Origin: Actinomycetota bacterium
GTDB taxonomy: Bacteria; Acidobacteriota; Blastocatellia; Chloracidobacteriales; Chloracidobacteriaceae
Reading direction: 5' to 3'
DNA: 22,035 nucleotides
Assembly (NCBI GenBank): GCA_013298335.1
Contig: JAAFHI010000003.1
Location: forward strand, 1-22,035
Below, piece after piece: positions 68-19,583 of this stretch (the stretch's first letter is position 1; each line of letters starts with the position of its first letter). The position numbers and the translations under genes were made by a program. The notes beneath the pieces were generated by a model. It saw only the letters and a list, made by a program, of their open reading frames with translations. It was not told where the DNA came from and did not search any database.

Positions 68-125
68 GACTCCCCAGACTCCCCAGACTCCCCAGACTCC
101 CCAGACTCCCCAGACTCCCCAGACT
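68..125. repeat. 9-bp tandem array GACTCCCCA, six full copies
   Basis: Six perfect copies of GACTCCCCA are followed by a partial copy (GACT). The array ends inside the stop codon of the minus-strand pepP gene: the stop complement CTA occupies 124-126, so the last bases of the array and the stop overlap. Read in the pepP direction, the unit is GTCTGGGGA and it begins at the TAG. A closely related unit (GTCTTGGGA) sits in the same position after the SDR gene at 15198-15269. Confidence 0.9.
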
Positions 126-1521
126 ATTTCTTCATAAGTGCTTCTATATCCGCGGTTTCCTTCGGCGCGGCGGCGGTGAGGTTTTCGTTGCCGTCGGCGG
201 TGACGAGGATGTCGTCCTCGATGCGGATGCCGATGCCGAGGAATTCCGCCGGGACGCCTTCGAGGTGCGGCGCGAAGTACAACCCCGGCTCGACGGTCAG
301 CACGCAGCCCGGTTCGAGTTTCCGGTAGCGCGCCTTGCCGAGTTCGTCGAATTCGCTCGTGAAGTAGCCGCAGTTGTCATGCACGTCGCTGCCGAGCCAG
401 TGGCCGGCGCGGTGCATGTAGAACTTCTCGTAGGTTTTATTGGTTTTGATCTCTTCCAGCGAGCCGTCGAGCAGTTTCAGGTCGCGGAGGCCCTCGATGA
501 GCGTGTCGAGCGCCGCCTGATGGTATTCGCCGAACAGGCGTCCGGGCTGGACGACCTCGATGGCCGCTTTCTGCGCGGCGAGTACCACGTCGTAAACGGC
601 TTTCTGGGCAGGCGAAAACTTCCCGTTGACCGGGAAGGTGCGGGTGATGTCGCTGGCGTAGTAGCCGTATTCCGCGCCCGCGTCGATGAGCAGCAGGTCG
701 CCGTCGGCCATCAGGCGGTCGTTGGTGTTGTAGTGCAGGATCGTGCCGTTTGCACCCGAACCGACGATGGACGTGTAGGCGCTGCCGTAGGCCCCGCGCC
801 GCCGGAAGACGTATTCCAGTTCGGCTTCGACTTCGAATTCATACTTGCCCGGCGCGGCGAACTGCATCGCCCGCACGTGCGCTTCGGCCCCGATGTCGGC
901 GGCGCGGTGCATGCGTTCGATCTCGTCGGCGTCCTTCATGAGCCGGAGGTCGCCCAGAATGAAAAGCGGGTCGCGAATCGTGTCGGGCGCGGTGCCGCCG
1001 CGCATCTTCTTCATCCGGGTGGCGCGGAAGGTCGAGAGAAACTGCTGGTTGAAATGCTCGTCGCGCCCGAATTTGAAGAAAAGCGTCGTGCCGCGATTGA
1101 AGTAGTCGCCGATTTTCGCGTTGAACTCGGAAATCGGGAAGGCTTCGTCCGCGCCGTATTTGGCCTTCGCACCCTCGATGCCCGCGCGCAGGCCGTCCCA
1201 CGTTTCGCGTTCCGGGTCGCGGGGACGGACGAACATCACGAACTTGTGCTCGGCGTGGTCGTTGGTCAGCACGACCACGGTTTCCGGTTCGTCGAAGCCC
1301 GTCAGGTAGTACACGTCGGAATCCGTCCGGAAGCGATAGTTCAGGTCGTGCGTCCGGTGCGGTTCGGGCGGGCTGTAGATGACGAGGGTGTTGACGCCGA
1401 TGGCGTCGAGCACGCTCTGGCGGCGGCGGCGATAGGTTGCGGCATCGTATTCGGGCGGCGCGAAAACCTGTCCGAAACGGTTCGGGGCGGCGGCTCTGGA
1501 GGGGGCGGTGGATGGCGGCAT
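124..1521 (-). CDS. pepP: Xaa-Pro aminopeptidase (M24B metallopeptidase)
   Basis: This 465-residue protein is expected to remove N-terminal residues preceding proline, in the cytoplasm. The N-terminal half (about residues 20-190) matches the creatinase/aminopeptidase-P N-domain. The C-terminal pita-bread domain carries all five expected dinuclear metal ligands: Asp280 (LLIDAGAE), Asp291 (SDITRTF), His374 (HWLGSDVHD), Glu411 (TVEPGLYF) and Glu435 (GIRIEDD). The length is normal for the family. The start is supported by a GAGGT ribosome-binding site about nine bases upstream. It lies 104 bases downstream of the DUF2237 gene on the same strand, separated by an inverted-repeat element. Its TAG stop overlaps a 9-bp tandem array. 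The family call is secure; the exact substrate is inferred. Confidence 0.95.
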   Translation of the reverse strand: MPPSTAPSRAAAPNRFGQVFAPPEYDAATYRRRRQSVLDAIGVNTLVIYSPPEPHRTHDLNYRFRTDSDVYYLTGFDEPETVVVLTNDHAEHKFVMFVRPRDPERETWDGLRAGIEGAKAKYGADEAFPISEFNAKIGDYFNRGTTLFFKFGRDEHFNQQFLSTFRATRMKKMRGGTAPDTIRDPLFILGDLRLMKDADEIERMHRAADIGAEAHVRAMQFAAPGKYEFEVEAELEYVFRRRGAYGSAYTSIVGSGANGTILHYNTNDRLMADGDLLLIDAGAEYGYYASDITRTFPVNGKFSPAQKAVYDVVLAAQKAAIEVVQPGRLFGEYHQAALDTLIEGLRDLKLLDGSLEEIKTNKTYEKFYMHRAGHWLGSDVHDNCGYFTSEFDELGKARYRKLEPGCVLTVEPGLYFAPHLEGVPAEFLGIGIRIEDDILVTADGNENLTAAAPKETADIEALMKK

Positions 1522-1537
1522 CGGTGTGTACCTCGGG

Positions 1538-17322: not shown

Positions 17323-17513
17323 GCTATATATTAAGGATCGCGCGCGTACGATGAACGAATCTTCAAAGTTCGACGCTCGGGATGTAAAAAGAAAAACGGC
17401 TTGAGCGAAGTAAAAATACAGTGAAATCGGTATTCCCACGGATACCGGTGCCCGGCGCGGCCTGCCACCCTGTGGTCATCACACGGCACGGGCCGTCACG
17501 AAAGGGTACCTCA

Positions 17514-19469
17514 ATGATTTCACGACACGCTCATTTCACCATCCCATCCTTCGGTTCAATTCAACCTTTCCTGAACATCGCCGCCGCACGCCGTCTGGCG
17601 ATGATCATGCTCGCCATCGGGTTCGGTCTGCTGGCGCAGGTCGCCTTCGCGCAGGCGCCGGGGTCGAACGACCCGTCGCTCACGTCGCCGTTCGGTCCCG
17701 GCGGCGGCAACACCACCGCGCTGCTTCCACTTCCGGACGGCAAAATTCTCCTCGGCACGAACGGGTTTCCCACCATCGGCGCGCAGCCGTCCGGCTTTTT
17801 CCGGTTGAATTCCGACGGTTCGCGGGACACCGGCTTCCCGTTCGTTCAGGTCAACAGCGGGGTCGCCGCGATTGCGCTCCAGTCGGACGGAAAAATCGTC
17901 ATCGGCGGTACATTCAGCGCCGTCAACGGCTCACCCCGCGCGGCGCTCGCGCGGCTCAACGCCGACGGAACGCTCGACGCGGGTTTTACGCCTTCCGCGT
18001 CCAGCGTCCGGGCGCTGGTGGTCGAACCGGACGGGCGGATTCTCGTCGCGGGCGCGTTTACGACCATCAATGGCTCGCCGCGCAATCGCCTCGCGCGGCT
18101 TAACGCCGACGGGACGCTCGTCGCTGCCTTCGCGCCCGACGTGAACGGCAACATCTCGGCCATGCGGCGGGATCAGGCCGGGAAGACCCTCATCGCCGGG
18201 GAGTTCACGACCATCAACGGCGTCACGCGAAACCTGCTCGCGCGGCTCAACGCCGACGGGACGCTCGACACGGGACTCCAGAGCCTGCCGTTATCCATCA
18301 CGTCGAACCCCCGAATTTTCGACTTCAAATTCACCTCCGACGGAAAAATCGTCATCGGCGGCGCGTTCCGCTTCGGCGCGGGGTTCAAGGACATTGCCCG
18401 GCTGCTGCCCGACGGGAATTTCGATCCGAATTTTCTGGCCTCGTTTGAAACGGGCGATGCTTCCACCGCGACCGGGCGCGTACAGACAGTGGCTGTCCAG
18501 CCGGACGGAAAAATCGTCATCGGCGGCGTGAACGGCCCCACCGGGGCGGCGGTTCTGTCGCGGCTGACCTCCGACGGCCAGGCGGAACCGGCCTTTACTC
18601 CACCGGGCTTTACCGGAACGAACGCCGGGGTCAGCGTGGTCGCGCTCCAGGCCAACGGACGGATTCTGGTCGGCGGCAACTTCGCGCAGGTCAACGACGC
18701 GTCGCAGCCCTTCATCGCGCGGGTATTCGCCGGCTGTCTGTTCAATCCGGTCGTGCTCGCCGCGCCCGCCGCCGGGATGACCGGGCAACTGGCGGTTTCC
18801 TCGAACGATACGGCGTGTTCGTTTTCGGCGACCGCCGACGCGCCGTGGCTGTCCATCACCGGCGGTTCTCCGGGACAGGGCAGCGGACGCATCGGTTTTG
18901 CCGTCGCGCCGAACACCGGCGGCGAGCGGACCGGCACGATTACCGTCAACGGCCAGATTTTCACCATCACGCAGGACGCCGTCGCGCCGACCAACGTCAA
19001 CGCCCTCGTCCGGGTCGCCATCACGTCCTCCGTGGCCGCCGCGCCGGGGACCTGCACCGGCGTGGGGTATGCCGACGACGTCCTGCTCACCGCCACGCTG
19101 ACCAACGTTTCCTCGGTTCCGCTGACGGATCTGTCGTTCGTCGTCGCCAGCCTCGGATTTCCCGACGGAACTCCGACCGGCGCGATTCCCGGCACGCCGC
19201 CTTTCCGCCTCGGCACGGCGAATGACTTCGTTTCCCCCTGTGTCAGCGGCGGCGTGGCCGGTTCGCCGCAGCGCGTGAACGGCGGCCTCGCGCCGGGGCA
19301 GTCCGCCGCCATCACCTTCCGCGTCGCCCGCCCCGAGGCGAAACGCTTTCGCTTCCTCGTGAACGTGATGGCCATCGCCAACGGCGGCGCGAAATCCGGG
19401 AACGGAAAACGCCTTGAAACCGCCGCCGCCGGCCACGAGGTGGAGGTGGAACTCAACGCAAGGCGTTGA
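17514..19469 (+). CDS. secreted delta-60 repeat protein with BACON domain
   Basis: This 651-residue exported protein probably acts at or beyond the outer membrane. The signal peptide ends at AFA (residues 44-46) after a hydrophobic stretch from about 28. Residues 65-405 are about seven delta-60 repeats, a beta-propeller-like unit with the pattern QSDGKIVIGGTF then ALARLNADGTLDAGF. From Cys408 to about 490 lies a BACON-type beta-sandwich (DAPWLSITGGSPGQGSGRI, RTGTITVNGQIFTITQDA), a domain often linked to carbohydrate or mucin contact. A final beta-rich domain follows to the end. The start at 17514 is supported by AAAGGG eight bases upstream; an earlier ATG at 17421 would give an implausible N-terminus. 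The ligand is unknown. Confidence 0.92.
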   Translation: MISRHAHFTIPSFGSIQPFLNIAAARRLAMIMLAIGFGLLAQVAFAQAPGSNDPSLTSPFGPGGGNTTALLPLPDGKILLGTNGFPTIGAQPSGFFRLNSDGSRDTGFPFVQVNSGVAAIALQSDGKIVIGGTFSAVNGSPRAALARLNADGTLDAGFTPSASSVRALVVEPDGRILVAGAFTTINGSPRNRLARLNADGTLVAAFAPDVNGNISAMRRDQAGKTLIAGEFTTINGVTRNLLARLNADGTLDTGLQSLPLSITSNPRIFDFKFTSDGKIVIGGAFRFGAGFKDIARLLPDGNFDPNFLASFETGDASTATGRVQTVAVQPDGKIVIGGVNGPTGAAVLSRLTSDGQAEPAFTPPGFTGTNAGVSVVALQANGRILVGGNFAQVNDASQPFIARVFAGCLFNPVVLAAPAAGMTGQLAVSSNDTACSFSATADAPWLSITGGSPGQGSGRIGFAVAPNTGGERTGTITVNGQIFTITQDAVAPTNVNALVRVAITSSVAAAPGTCTGVGYADDVLLTATLTNVSSVPLTDLSFVVASLGFPDGTPTGAIPGTPPFRLGTANDFVSPCVSGGVAGSPQRVNGGLAPGQSAAITFRVARPEAKRFRFLVNVMAIANGGAKSGNGKRLETAAAGHEVEVELNARR

Positions 19470-19583
19470 GAATTATGAATGATGAATTATGAATGATGAA
19501 TTTCGGAGTTTGCGGCGTCGGTCGCGAAAACCCCGTCTCGCAATTCCGTCAATTCATCATTCATAATTCAAAATTCATCATTC
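19470..19583. repeat. inverted pair of A/T-rich tandem arrays after the delta-60 gene
   Basis: The left array (19470-19503) repeats GAATTATGAAT and GATGAATT units and begins at the base after the TGA stop of the delta-60 gene. The right array (19550-19583) is its inverse (AATTCATCATTCATAATTC and variants). About 46 GC-rich bases separate them. The arms can pair for 15 bases or more, and the whole fills the gap to the kinase gene, ending just before its ribosome-binding site. Confidence 0.88.

What the first reader, a model, noticed from the sequence alone, without database searches (positions are those of the whole stretch)
68..19503. Unrelated short tandem arrays begin at the stop codons of four genes
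Four genes end inside or against a tandem array: pepP (stop 124-126, array 68-125), the SDR gene (stop 15263-15265, array 15198-15269), the hydrolase (stop 13785-13787, array 13761-13790) and the delta-60 gene (stop 19467-19469, array from 19470). The units differ (two 9-mers, two A/T-rich motifs), so this is not one repeat copied around. It suggests a process that creates or tolerates arrays precisely at 3' ends of genes, perhaps by slippage primed at termination-linked structures, or arrays acting as 3' UTR elements. The arrays often lack an obvious terminator nearby.
Basis: partly seen in the sequence, partly recalled or inferred. Interest (0 to 1): 0.72.

Follow-up and report, generated by a model that had tools for sequence, protein, structure and literature searches.

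The report
Gene-junction mobile elements with repeat-array ends
The short repeat arrays that touch gene ends are the outer edges of small mobile-looking elements: two mirror-image repeat arrays around a gene for a small ring-forming protein of unknown function, or around almost nothing, lodged between the stop of one gene and the start of the next.

Summary
The arrays are real and do start at stop codons, but each is usually half of something larger: an inverted pair, a G-rich left arm and its reverse complement on the right. Between the arms lies a gene of the PF05635/TIGR02436 four-helix-bundle family (23S "intervening sequence protein", IVP/S23p) or a short spacer. In the window, 14649-14689 and 15197-15257 flank an IVP gene (14749-15120); 19468-19502/19551-19585 form a mini-element. 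The two "different" 9-mers are one family, with about 30 arrays listed genome-wide. Outer edges sit at stop codons in 20 of 21 (own genome) and 20 of 30 (two relatives) stop-facing cases, against 2.9 and 1.6 expected; they also hug start codons. Inverted arms flank 84 of 94 tested IVP genes of the class and recur in other phyla. Unit and period follow the IVP subfamily, not the genome. Eight IVP-less genomes gave 1 array per 400 kb, ten IVP-rich ones 16. In one genus the rpsG-fusA and clpP-clpX junctions are short, hold mini-elements, or hold full IVP elements. Two 95% identical copies in one draft genome share nothing beyond their arms. IVP is under purifying selection. How they move is inferred; no catalytic enzyme was identified.

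The parts
1..126 (.). Apparent mini-element of the GACTCCC family, cut by the contig start: left arm about 1-25, spacer, right arm 67-125; outer edge fused to the pepP stop (124-126, - strand)
   Evidence: inverted alignment 1-25 with 67-91, score 25, modest; RNA fold z -2.7
124..1521 (-). pepP-like Xaa-Pro aminopeptidase gene, whose stop touches the array
   Evidence: PF00557, PF05195
13758..13793 (.). A/T-rich heptamer-like array containing the hydrolase stop codon; no inverted partner found (solo arm or remnant)
   Evidence: TRF score 35-44; partner search best score 16, taken as none
13785..14642 (-). alpha/beta hydrolase gene; stop inside the array 13758-13793, start codon next to the left arm 14649-14689
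   Evidence: PF12697, PF00561
14649..14689 (.). Left arm (AGTCTTGGG units) of the IVP element
   Evidence: pairs with 15197-15237, score 67
14749..15120 (-). IVP gene (PF05635/TIGR02436 four-helix-bundle protein, 123 aa) inside the element; 'FED' subfamily (my label)
   Evidence: PF05635 E 1.3e-31, TIGR02436 E 1.7e-30
15197..15269 (.). Right arm (GACTCCCAA units) of the IVP element; its degenerate outer end supplies the SDR stop codon
15263..15970 (-). SDR-family (FabG-like) gene ending in the right arm
   Evidence: PF00106; start at 15970 is my choice
16071..16215 (.). CTGACTA x 20 array between two gene starts, no partner found; apparently the family of the arms of another IVP element of this genome (L031)
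   Evidence: TRF; partner search best score 8; family match inferred
17421..19469 (+). delta-60 repeat (DUF5122 propeller) gene; its stop TGA directly precedes the array
   Evidence: TIGR02608, PF17164
19468..19502 (.). Left arm of an IVP-less mini-element
   Evidence: pairs with 19551-19585, score 55
19551..19585 (.). Right arm of the same mini-element, before the next gene's start (19603)
   Evidence: RNA hairpin over 19465-19600, z -8.0

Best explanation
The arrays are the terminal arms of a family of small elements, here called IVP elements. An element consists of a left array (G-rich unit, period mostly 7 or 9), an IVP/S23p gene, and a right array that is the reverse complement of the left; mini-elements have both arms around a short spacer. 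They lodge between the stop of one gene and the start of the next, mostly between same-strand genes and with the IVP gene co-directional. SHOWN: inverted pairing, association with IVP genes, position at gene junctions, unit and period following the IVP subfamily, presence/absence at the same junction among congeners, two 95% identical copies of a whole unit at unrelated sites of one draft genome, and purifying selection on IVP. INFERRED: (a) the IVP ring (homopentamer in a solved relative) binds its own repeat units, one unit per subunit, as RNA or single-stranded DNA (about 0.6); (b) this binding lets the element and its mini-derivatives be copied into gene junctions with help from host or trans-acting enzymes, since IVP has no known catalytic domain (about 0.5); (c) stops are favoured by survival: an insert exactly between stop and start harms little and the repeats can supply stop codons (about 0.7).
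For: Own genome: all seven PF05635 loci with both flanks have inverted arrays on both sides, each with its own unit; an eighth, a fragment at a contig end, borders an array on its one available side. Class: inverted-flank score >=28 at 84 of 94 testable IVP loci (of 96 taken), against 20 of 294 called genes and 30 of 2000 random intervals in 400 kb. Polarity: left arm G>C in 79 of 89 loci with score >=24 (7 C>G, 3 equal). Outer edges at stops 20 of 21 and 20 of 30; inner edges near any gene end 2 of 41 and 0 of 57. Unit follows protein: Mantel rho 0.25, null max 0.10 (n 88); between genera 0.23, null max 0.083; same-genome pairs with IVP identity <0.5 share almost no 6-mers (mean 0.018, 68 pairs). 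Period 9 in 10 of 17 'FED' IVPs and 0 of 62 others, 16 of 95 unassigned. Same junctions in one genus: rpsG-fusA (30 loci) 3 gaps of 2 nt, 25 of 43-98 nt (19 significantly inverted, 15 of these also tandem-periodic), 2 IVP elements; clpP-clpX (29 of 30 parsed) 12 gaps under 40 nt, 14 of 42-219 nt (8 inverted and periodic, 6 neither), 3 IVP elements (gene names). L198/L204: 95% identity over 447 nt ending at the arrays, arrays directly after a called gene's stop in both. dN/dS 0.057 for that pair. Arrays per 400 kb: 1 in eight IVP-less genomes, 16 in ten IVP-rich ones, 11 of the 16 with an inverted partner within 700 nt. Other phyla: 63 of 79 testable loci score >=28. 42 of 45 own arrays outside IVP elements match the arms of a resident IVP element.
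Against: No transposase, target-site duplication or transposition intermediate was found. Two window arrays (13758-13793, 16071-16215) have no partner, nor do 5 of 16 arrays in the IVP-rich sample. Ten of 94 IVP loci score <28, though several show degenerate inverted repeats. Some unit-protein similarity is vertical inheritance (L167/L190, L086/L160, L096/L173 are syntenic). 10 of 30 stop-facing edges in the relatives are farther than 12 nt. The density comparison is small and not corrected for phylogeny; two of ten IVP-rich genomes showed no array; in-gene arrays were left out (3 and 7). Some junction inserts are palindromes without arrays and 6 of 25 in rpsG-fusA are not significantly inverted. 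In one search a mismatched-locus control also scores high (356 of 2000), because the unit itself is shared. The own genome is a fragmented draft (1093 contigs), and G033 (L198/L204) is a draft too.
Confidence: 0.86

Rival explanations
1. Replication slippage (or termination-linked slippage) makes tandem arrays at 3' ends of genes in situ; the arrays are unrelated to one another.
For: Unit numbers vary widely (2.9 to 33.6), so slippage probably changes array length; edges are at stops.
Against: Inverted partners with the same unit, an IVP gene between them, edges at starts too, one family at about 30 listed sites, near absence in the IVP-less genomes sampled.
Confidence: 0.03
2. The inverted arrays are domesticated regulatory hairpins of operons (RNase III sites, differential stability, attenuation) bound by IVP as a host regulator; mobility is minor or ancient.
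For: IVP is co-directional with both neighbours in 69 of 79 resolved loci. Elements sit in rpsG-fusA, clpP-clpX and lspA-lgt. Two mini-elements fold strongly as RNA (z -8.0 and -10.2; a third z -2.7). 27 of 30 rpsG-fusA gaps are longer than 2 nt.
Against: The same junction holds unrelated families or nothing in congeners; multi-copy spread with a near-identical pair in one genome; each IVP has its own unit.
Confidence: 0.15
3. The arms are mobilised in trans by HUH (Y1/RAYT) transposases, and IVP is an accessory or passenger.
For: Y1_Tnp matches are in 101 of 118 genomes, 5 in the own one, and co-occur with IVP (91 both, 10 Y1 only, 7 IVP only, 10 neither; Fisher 2e-5, not phylogeny-corrected). 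HUH transposases use hairpin ends (recalled).
Against: Y1 without IVP gives almost no arrays: IVP-less G011, G018, G027, G036 and G040 have Y1 matches (G036 weak) and 1 intergenic array in 220 kb sampled. G080 has 7 IVP matches and no Y1 match. The Y1-like genes seen here are flanked by their own palindromes (identified by my reading).
Confidence: 0.2
4. Elements spread by reverse transcription (IVP resembles the DGR accessory protein Avd).
For: A paper passage notes PF05635-Avd homology (PMC10053308); sense orientation between same-strand genes.
Against: RVT_1 matches are in only 43 of 118 genomes and not in the own genome, which has 9 IVP matches.
Confidence: 0.04

Closest known systems
23S rRNA intervening sequences (IVS) encoding S23p/IVP (Leptospira, Coxiella and others)
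   Same: Same protein family; complementary ends; in the Coxiella IVS tandem heptamers (GACAGAT) lie directly upstream of the S23p start, and it is described as a 428-nt selfish element excised by RNase III (PMC4990558, passages).
   Different: Here the elements lie between protein genes, have arrays on both sides, are multi-copy, with mini-elements; excision from RNA was not tested.
Heptameric repeats of Xanthomonas and Nostoc (GGGAATC type) and TAACTGA repeats of Beggiatoaceae, Cyanobacteria and Bacteroidetes
   Same: Same rule in print: G-rich repeats near stops on the sense strand or near starts on the antisense strand, some overlapping stops, 70 and 75 inverted pairs in two Xanthomonas genomes (PMC4692102, passages and section 13); TAACTGA arrays just upstream of starts, including fusA (PMC4679880).
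   Different: Neither paper, in what I read of it, links them to IVP; one says they are generally not associated with mobile elements, the other that no mechanism is evident and that a repeat-binding protein might be the mobile element. No TAACTGA double unit was in the loci fetched here.
REP/REPIN-RAYT system
   Same: Inverted-repeat mini-elements in intergenic spaces, each family tied to its own resident protein gene, co-evolution of protein and repeat (PMC3116915, passages).
   Different: Tandem arrays instead of palindromic REPs; a four-helix-bundle protein instead of an HUH transposase; protein gene inside the element, with several copies per genome.
TRAP and tandem NAG repeats (recalled)
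   Same: Ring protein reading tandem short repeats, one per subunit (proposed here only).
   Different: No binding data here; different fold.

Membership tests
PF05635 / TIGR02436 (window 14749-15120) | Profile match above the curated cut-off over nearly the full model | tested here: met
   PF05635 109.4 bits (cut-off 33.8), positions 1-105/106; TIGR02436 105.4 bits (cut-off 24), 2-108/109
23S rRNA IVS | Located inside an rRNA gene | tested here: not met
   Window element lies between SDR and hydrolase genes; others in rpsG-fusA, clpP-clpX, lspA-lgt
23S rRNA IVS | Encodes S23p/IVP, with complementary ends | tested here: met
23S rRNA IVS | Excised from the transcript by RNase III | not testable with these tools
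   Only predicted RNA hairpins
REPIN-RAYT | Associated HUH (Y1) transposase | tested here: not met
   The associated gene is PF05635; no Y1_Tnp match in G080, which has 7 IVP matches. A trans-acting Y1 enzyme elsewhere is not excluded
REPIN-RAYT | Inverted doublets of a repeat whose family matches a resident gene | tested here: met
Insertion sequence / MITE | Terminal inverted repeats around a catalytic transposase (MITE: without it, moved by one) | tested here: not met
   Inverted ends yes; the only ORF with a family match inside the window element is PF05635, no transposase domain
Insertion sequence / MITE | Target-site duplication | tested here: inconclusive
   None evident to me in short and filled rpsG-fusA and clpP-clpX junctions; species too far apart to be sure
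Diversity-generating retroelement (Avd) | Reverse transcriptase in the system | tested here: not met
   No RVT_1 match in the own genome, a 90.5% complete draft
Simple slippage-born microsatellite | Single, locally born arrays without inverted partner or dedicated gene | tested here: not met

The most novel reading that the evidence does not exclude
IVP elements are a separate, bacteria-wide class of mobile element without a transposase of its own. A non-catalytic pentameric ring protein reads its own tandem repeats (unit and period set by its subfamily) and steers copies of any DNA with matching inverted arrays into the seams between genes. They are the common source of the long-known 7- to 9-nt repeat arrays (STRR-type, TAACTGA, GGGAATC, GACTCCC) at gene boundaries, and 23S intervening sequences are the members that landed in rRNA.
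Probability: 0.45. Interest if true: 0.93.

Novelty: new variant of a known kind. Interest (0 to 1): 0.85.

Why it matters
It offers one cause for two old puzzles: what the widespread S23p/IVP protein is for, and where the heptamer-type arrays at gene boundaries come from (two papers describe such arrays and report no mobile element or no evident mechanism). Both become testable by a binding assay and a mobility assay. It also shows that such elements repeatedly enter core operons (rpsG-fusA, clpP-clpX) in species of one genus, so they may shape operon RNA, and they make draft assemblies break.

Tried and rejected
Reverse transcription: RVT_1 in 43 of 118 genomes and none in the own genome, so not required. 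HUH transposase as sole cause: kept as a rival with counter-examples both ways. Synteny of the SDR-hydrolase pair: in the loci of relatives with a close hydrolase (within about 1.5 kb) SDR is not adjacent, except one distant SDR match in L052, so no empty site for the window's own element; no second genome of the genus is held. Link to TAACTGA: no TAACTGATAACTGA in the 362 loci fetched by then, so the link to Beggiatoaceae repeats rests on polarity and unit class only. Pentamer = five units: aligned arm length/7 has median 4.7 (n 84) and units per array median 5.7 (n 59, range 2.9-33.6); suggestive at best. In one search the mismatched-locus control is itself high (356 of 2000 >=28) because one IVP subfamily carries the same unit in many phyla, so that call supports unit conservation more than pairing. 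One fold (L239) used a slice that missed the element and is ignored. One search ended with an error after its counts were printed (saving a file failed).

Selection of rows: the 96 IVP loci are 7 own, 29 best-ranked (one per genome) and 60 further high-ranking listed matches (not random); 2 were dropped as too short. Searches gave loci for the best 30 of 33 and of 39 matching genomes (41 searched).

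Full report
OBSERVATION. But the list was selective. The same 9-mer occurs inverted at 14649-14688, 6 nt from the start codon of the hydrolase; a 145-nt CTGACTA array lies between two gene starts; and 19470-19502 has an inverted partner at 19551-19583. The two 9-mers are one family: 106 overlapping matches of a three-unit pattern in the 5.1-Mb draft genome, the first 100 of which fall into about 30 arrays.

WHAT LIES BETWEEN. 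Between 14649-14689 and 15197-15257 sits a gene for a PF05635/TIGR02436 protein, the family known from intervening sequences of 23S rRNA. The own genome has nine PF05635 matches, at eight loci. The seven loci with both flanks all have inverted short tandem arrays on both sides (scores 38-71), the same unit on both sides of one gene and different units for different genes; the eighth is a fragment at a contig end that borders an array on its one side. The elements are squeezed between neighbouring genes.

STATISTICS. With a simple composition-based gene caller I classified arrays of period 7-9 as left-type (G>C) or right-type (C>G). The outer edge lies within -20..+12 nt of a stop in 20 of 21 stop-facing cases in the own-genome sample, against 2.9 expected for uniform placement, and in 20 of 30 in 400 kb of two relatives (expected 1.6). 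For starts it is 8 of 20 (1.6) and 9 of 27 (1.3). Inner edges are that close to a gene end in 2 of 41 and 0 of 57. Arrays dropped as lying in genes: 2 own, 1 in relatives. A third sample gave 4 of 6 stops and 6 of 8 starts (expected 0.43 and 0.65).

ASSOCIATION WITH IVP. PF05635 is in 98 of 118 genomes of the class, up to 17 matches each. Inverted-flank alignment reaches score 28 at 84 of 94 testable IVP loci, 20 of 294 called genes and 30 of 2000 random intervals; at score 24 the figures are 89, 42 and 118. Several of the high-scoring other genes look like IS200/RAYT-type transposases with their own palindromes (my reading of the sequences). With a single IVP subfamily as query, 80 loci were kept from many phyla, and 63 of 79 testable score >=28; by my count from the record titles 18 of the 80 are Acidobacteriota and 48 of the 61 testable others score >=28. 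The mismatched-locus control there is high too (356 of 2000) since the unit is shared. Of 33 plasmid records with a match (mostly cyanobacterial) I looked at four loci, two of them with the same arms on two plasmids of one strain; all four have inverted arrays. In 400 kb from eight IVP-less genomes there is 1 intergenic array, in 400 kb from ten IVP-rich ones 16, of which 11 have an inverted partner within 700 nt (Mann-Whitney p 0.0036, not phylogeny-corrected; in-gene arrays left out 3 and 7).

UNIT FOLLOWS PROTEIN. IVP identity and arm 6-mer sharing correlate (Mantel rho 0.25, null max 0.10, n 88), also between genera only (0.23, null max 0.083), while unrelated IVPs in one genome share almost nothing. 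Some close pairs are syntenic orthologues, so part of this is common descent of whole elements. Period 9 occurs with the window's 'FED' subfamily (10 of 17 with a confident period) and with none of the others (0 of 62; 16 of 95 unassigned).

MOVEMENT. In one genus the rpsG-fusA gap (30 loci) is 2 nt in 3, 43-98 nt in 25 and a full IVP element in 2. Of the 25, 19 are significantly inverted against shuffles (p<=0.01) and 15 of these also tandem-periodic (11 with period 7); the other 6 are not significantly inverted. The clpP-clpX gap (29 of 30 parsed) is under 40 nt in 12, 42-219 nt in 14 (8 inverted and periodic, 6 neither) and a full element in 3. Gene names at these junctions and lspA-lgt are backed by NCBIfam matches for one locus each. 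In draft genome G033 two copies are 95% identical over 447 nt; the similarity ends in the arrays and the flanks are unrelated; in both, the left array begins directly after the stop of a called gene. dN/dS between these two IVP genes is 0.057, and 0.045-0.18 in three other pairs; three further pairs were saturated. IVP is co-directional with both neighbours in 69 of 79 resolved loci (7 with a converging, 2 with two opposing, 1 with a diverging pair; 17 unresolved). In the own genome 42 of 45 arrays outside IVP elements match the arms of a resident IVP element (35 are the mostly pattern-picked GACTCCC family). The window element is the only one of the eight IVP loci of this genome with GACTCCC arms and so the likely source of that family (inference).

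MECHANISM. Relatives with solved structures (2gsc, 2rld) have five chains each, and a paper passage describes the Xanthomonas S23p as a homopentameric toroid (PMC4990558). I propose that the ring reads tandem units, one per subunit, and that inverted arms let RNA or single-stranded DNA of the element form the substrate that is copied or inserted; the enzyme is unknown. A resident reverse transcriptase is not required. HUH transposases co-occur with IVP but do not explain the arrays alone. Stop-codon adjacency then needs no special process: seams between genes are where an insert survives, and the repeats can supply stops.

LITERATURE. Seen: PMC4679880 (abstract, passages, sections 16 and 24), PMC4692102 (passages, section 13), PMC4990558 (passages), PMC3116915 (passages), PMC10053308, PMC11270868, PMC10910872, PMC11637426 (passages). 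No paper linking PF05635/S23p genes to inverted tandem arrays in intergenic elements turned up in the listings of searches of an open-licence library; subscription papers (for example early STRR work, recalled) were not searchable.

Noticed in passing
window 13077-13359: About thirteen copies of a degenerate 21-bp CGGAAAA... repeat, overlapping long open frames on both strands upstream of a TPR-protein gene; a different kind of repeat from the arms.
   Followed up: no
window 1-126 and ends of contigs C229, C392, C797, C969: The contig of the window appears to start inside an element of the GACTCCC family, and at least four other contigs begin or end within about 35 nt of such an array: the repeats break the assembly.
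   Followed up: partly
L036, L037/L138, L039: Decayed IVP copies in the own genome: one with an in-frame stop, one that appears split over two frames, one truncated at a contig end; arms are still recognisable where sequence is present.
   Followed up: partly
L149:3810-4268 and 11196-11654; L151:9488-9991; L156:2407-2952: Genes that look like IS200/RAYT-type transposases (my reading), flanked by inverted non-tandem palindromes: a parallel element class in the same genomes.
   Followed up: partly
L220, L222, L232, L234 (rpsG-fusA gap): Inserts of a CCGCAGAGACGCAGAG / CTCTGCGTCTC type (inverted, period 8-9) at the same junction, apparently another mini-element family; no IVP partner was looked for.
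   Followed up: no
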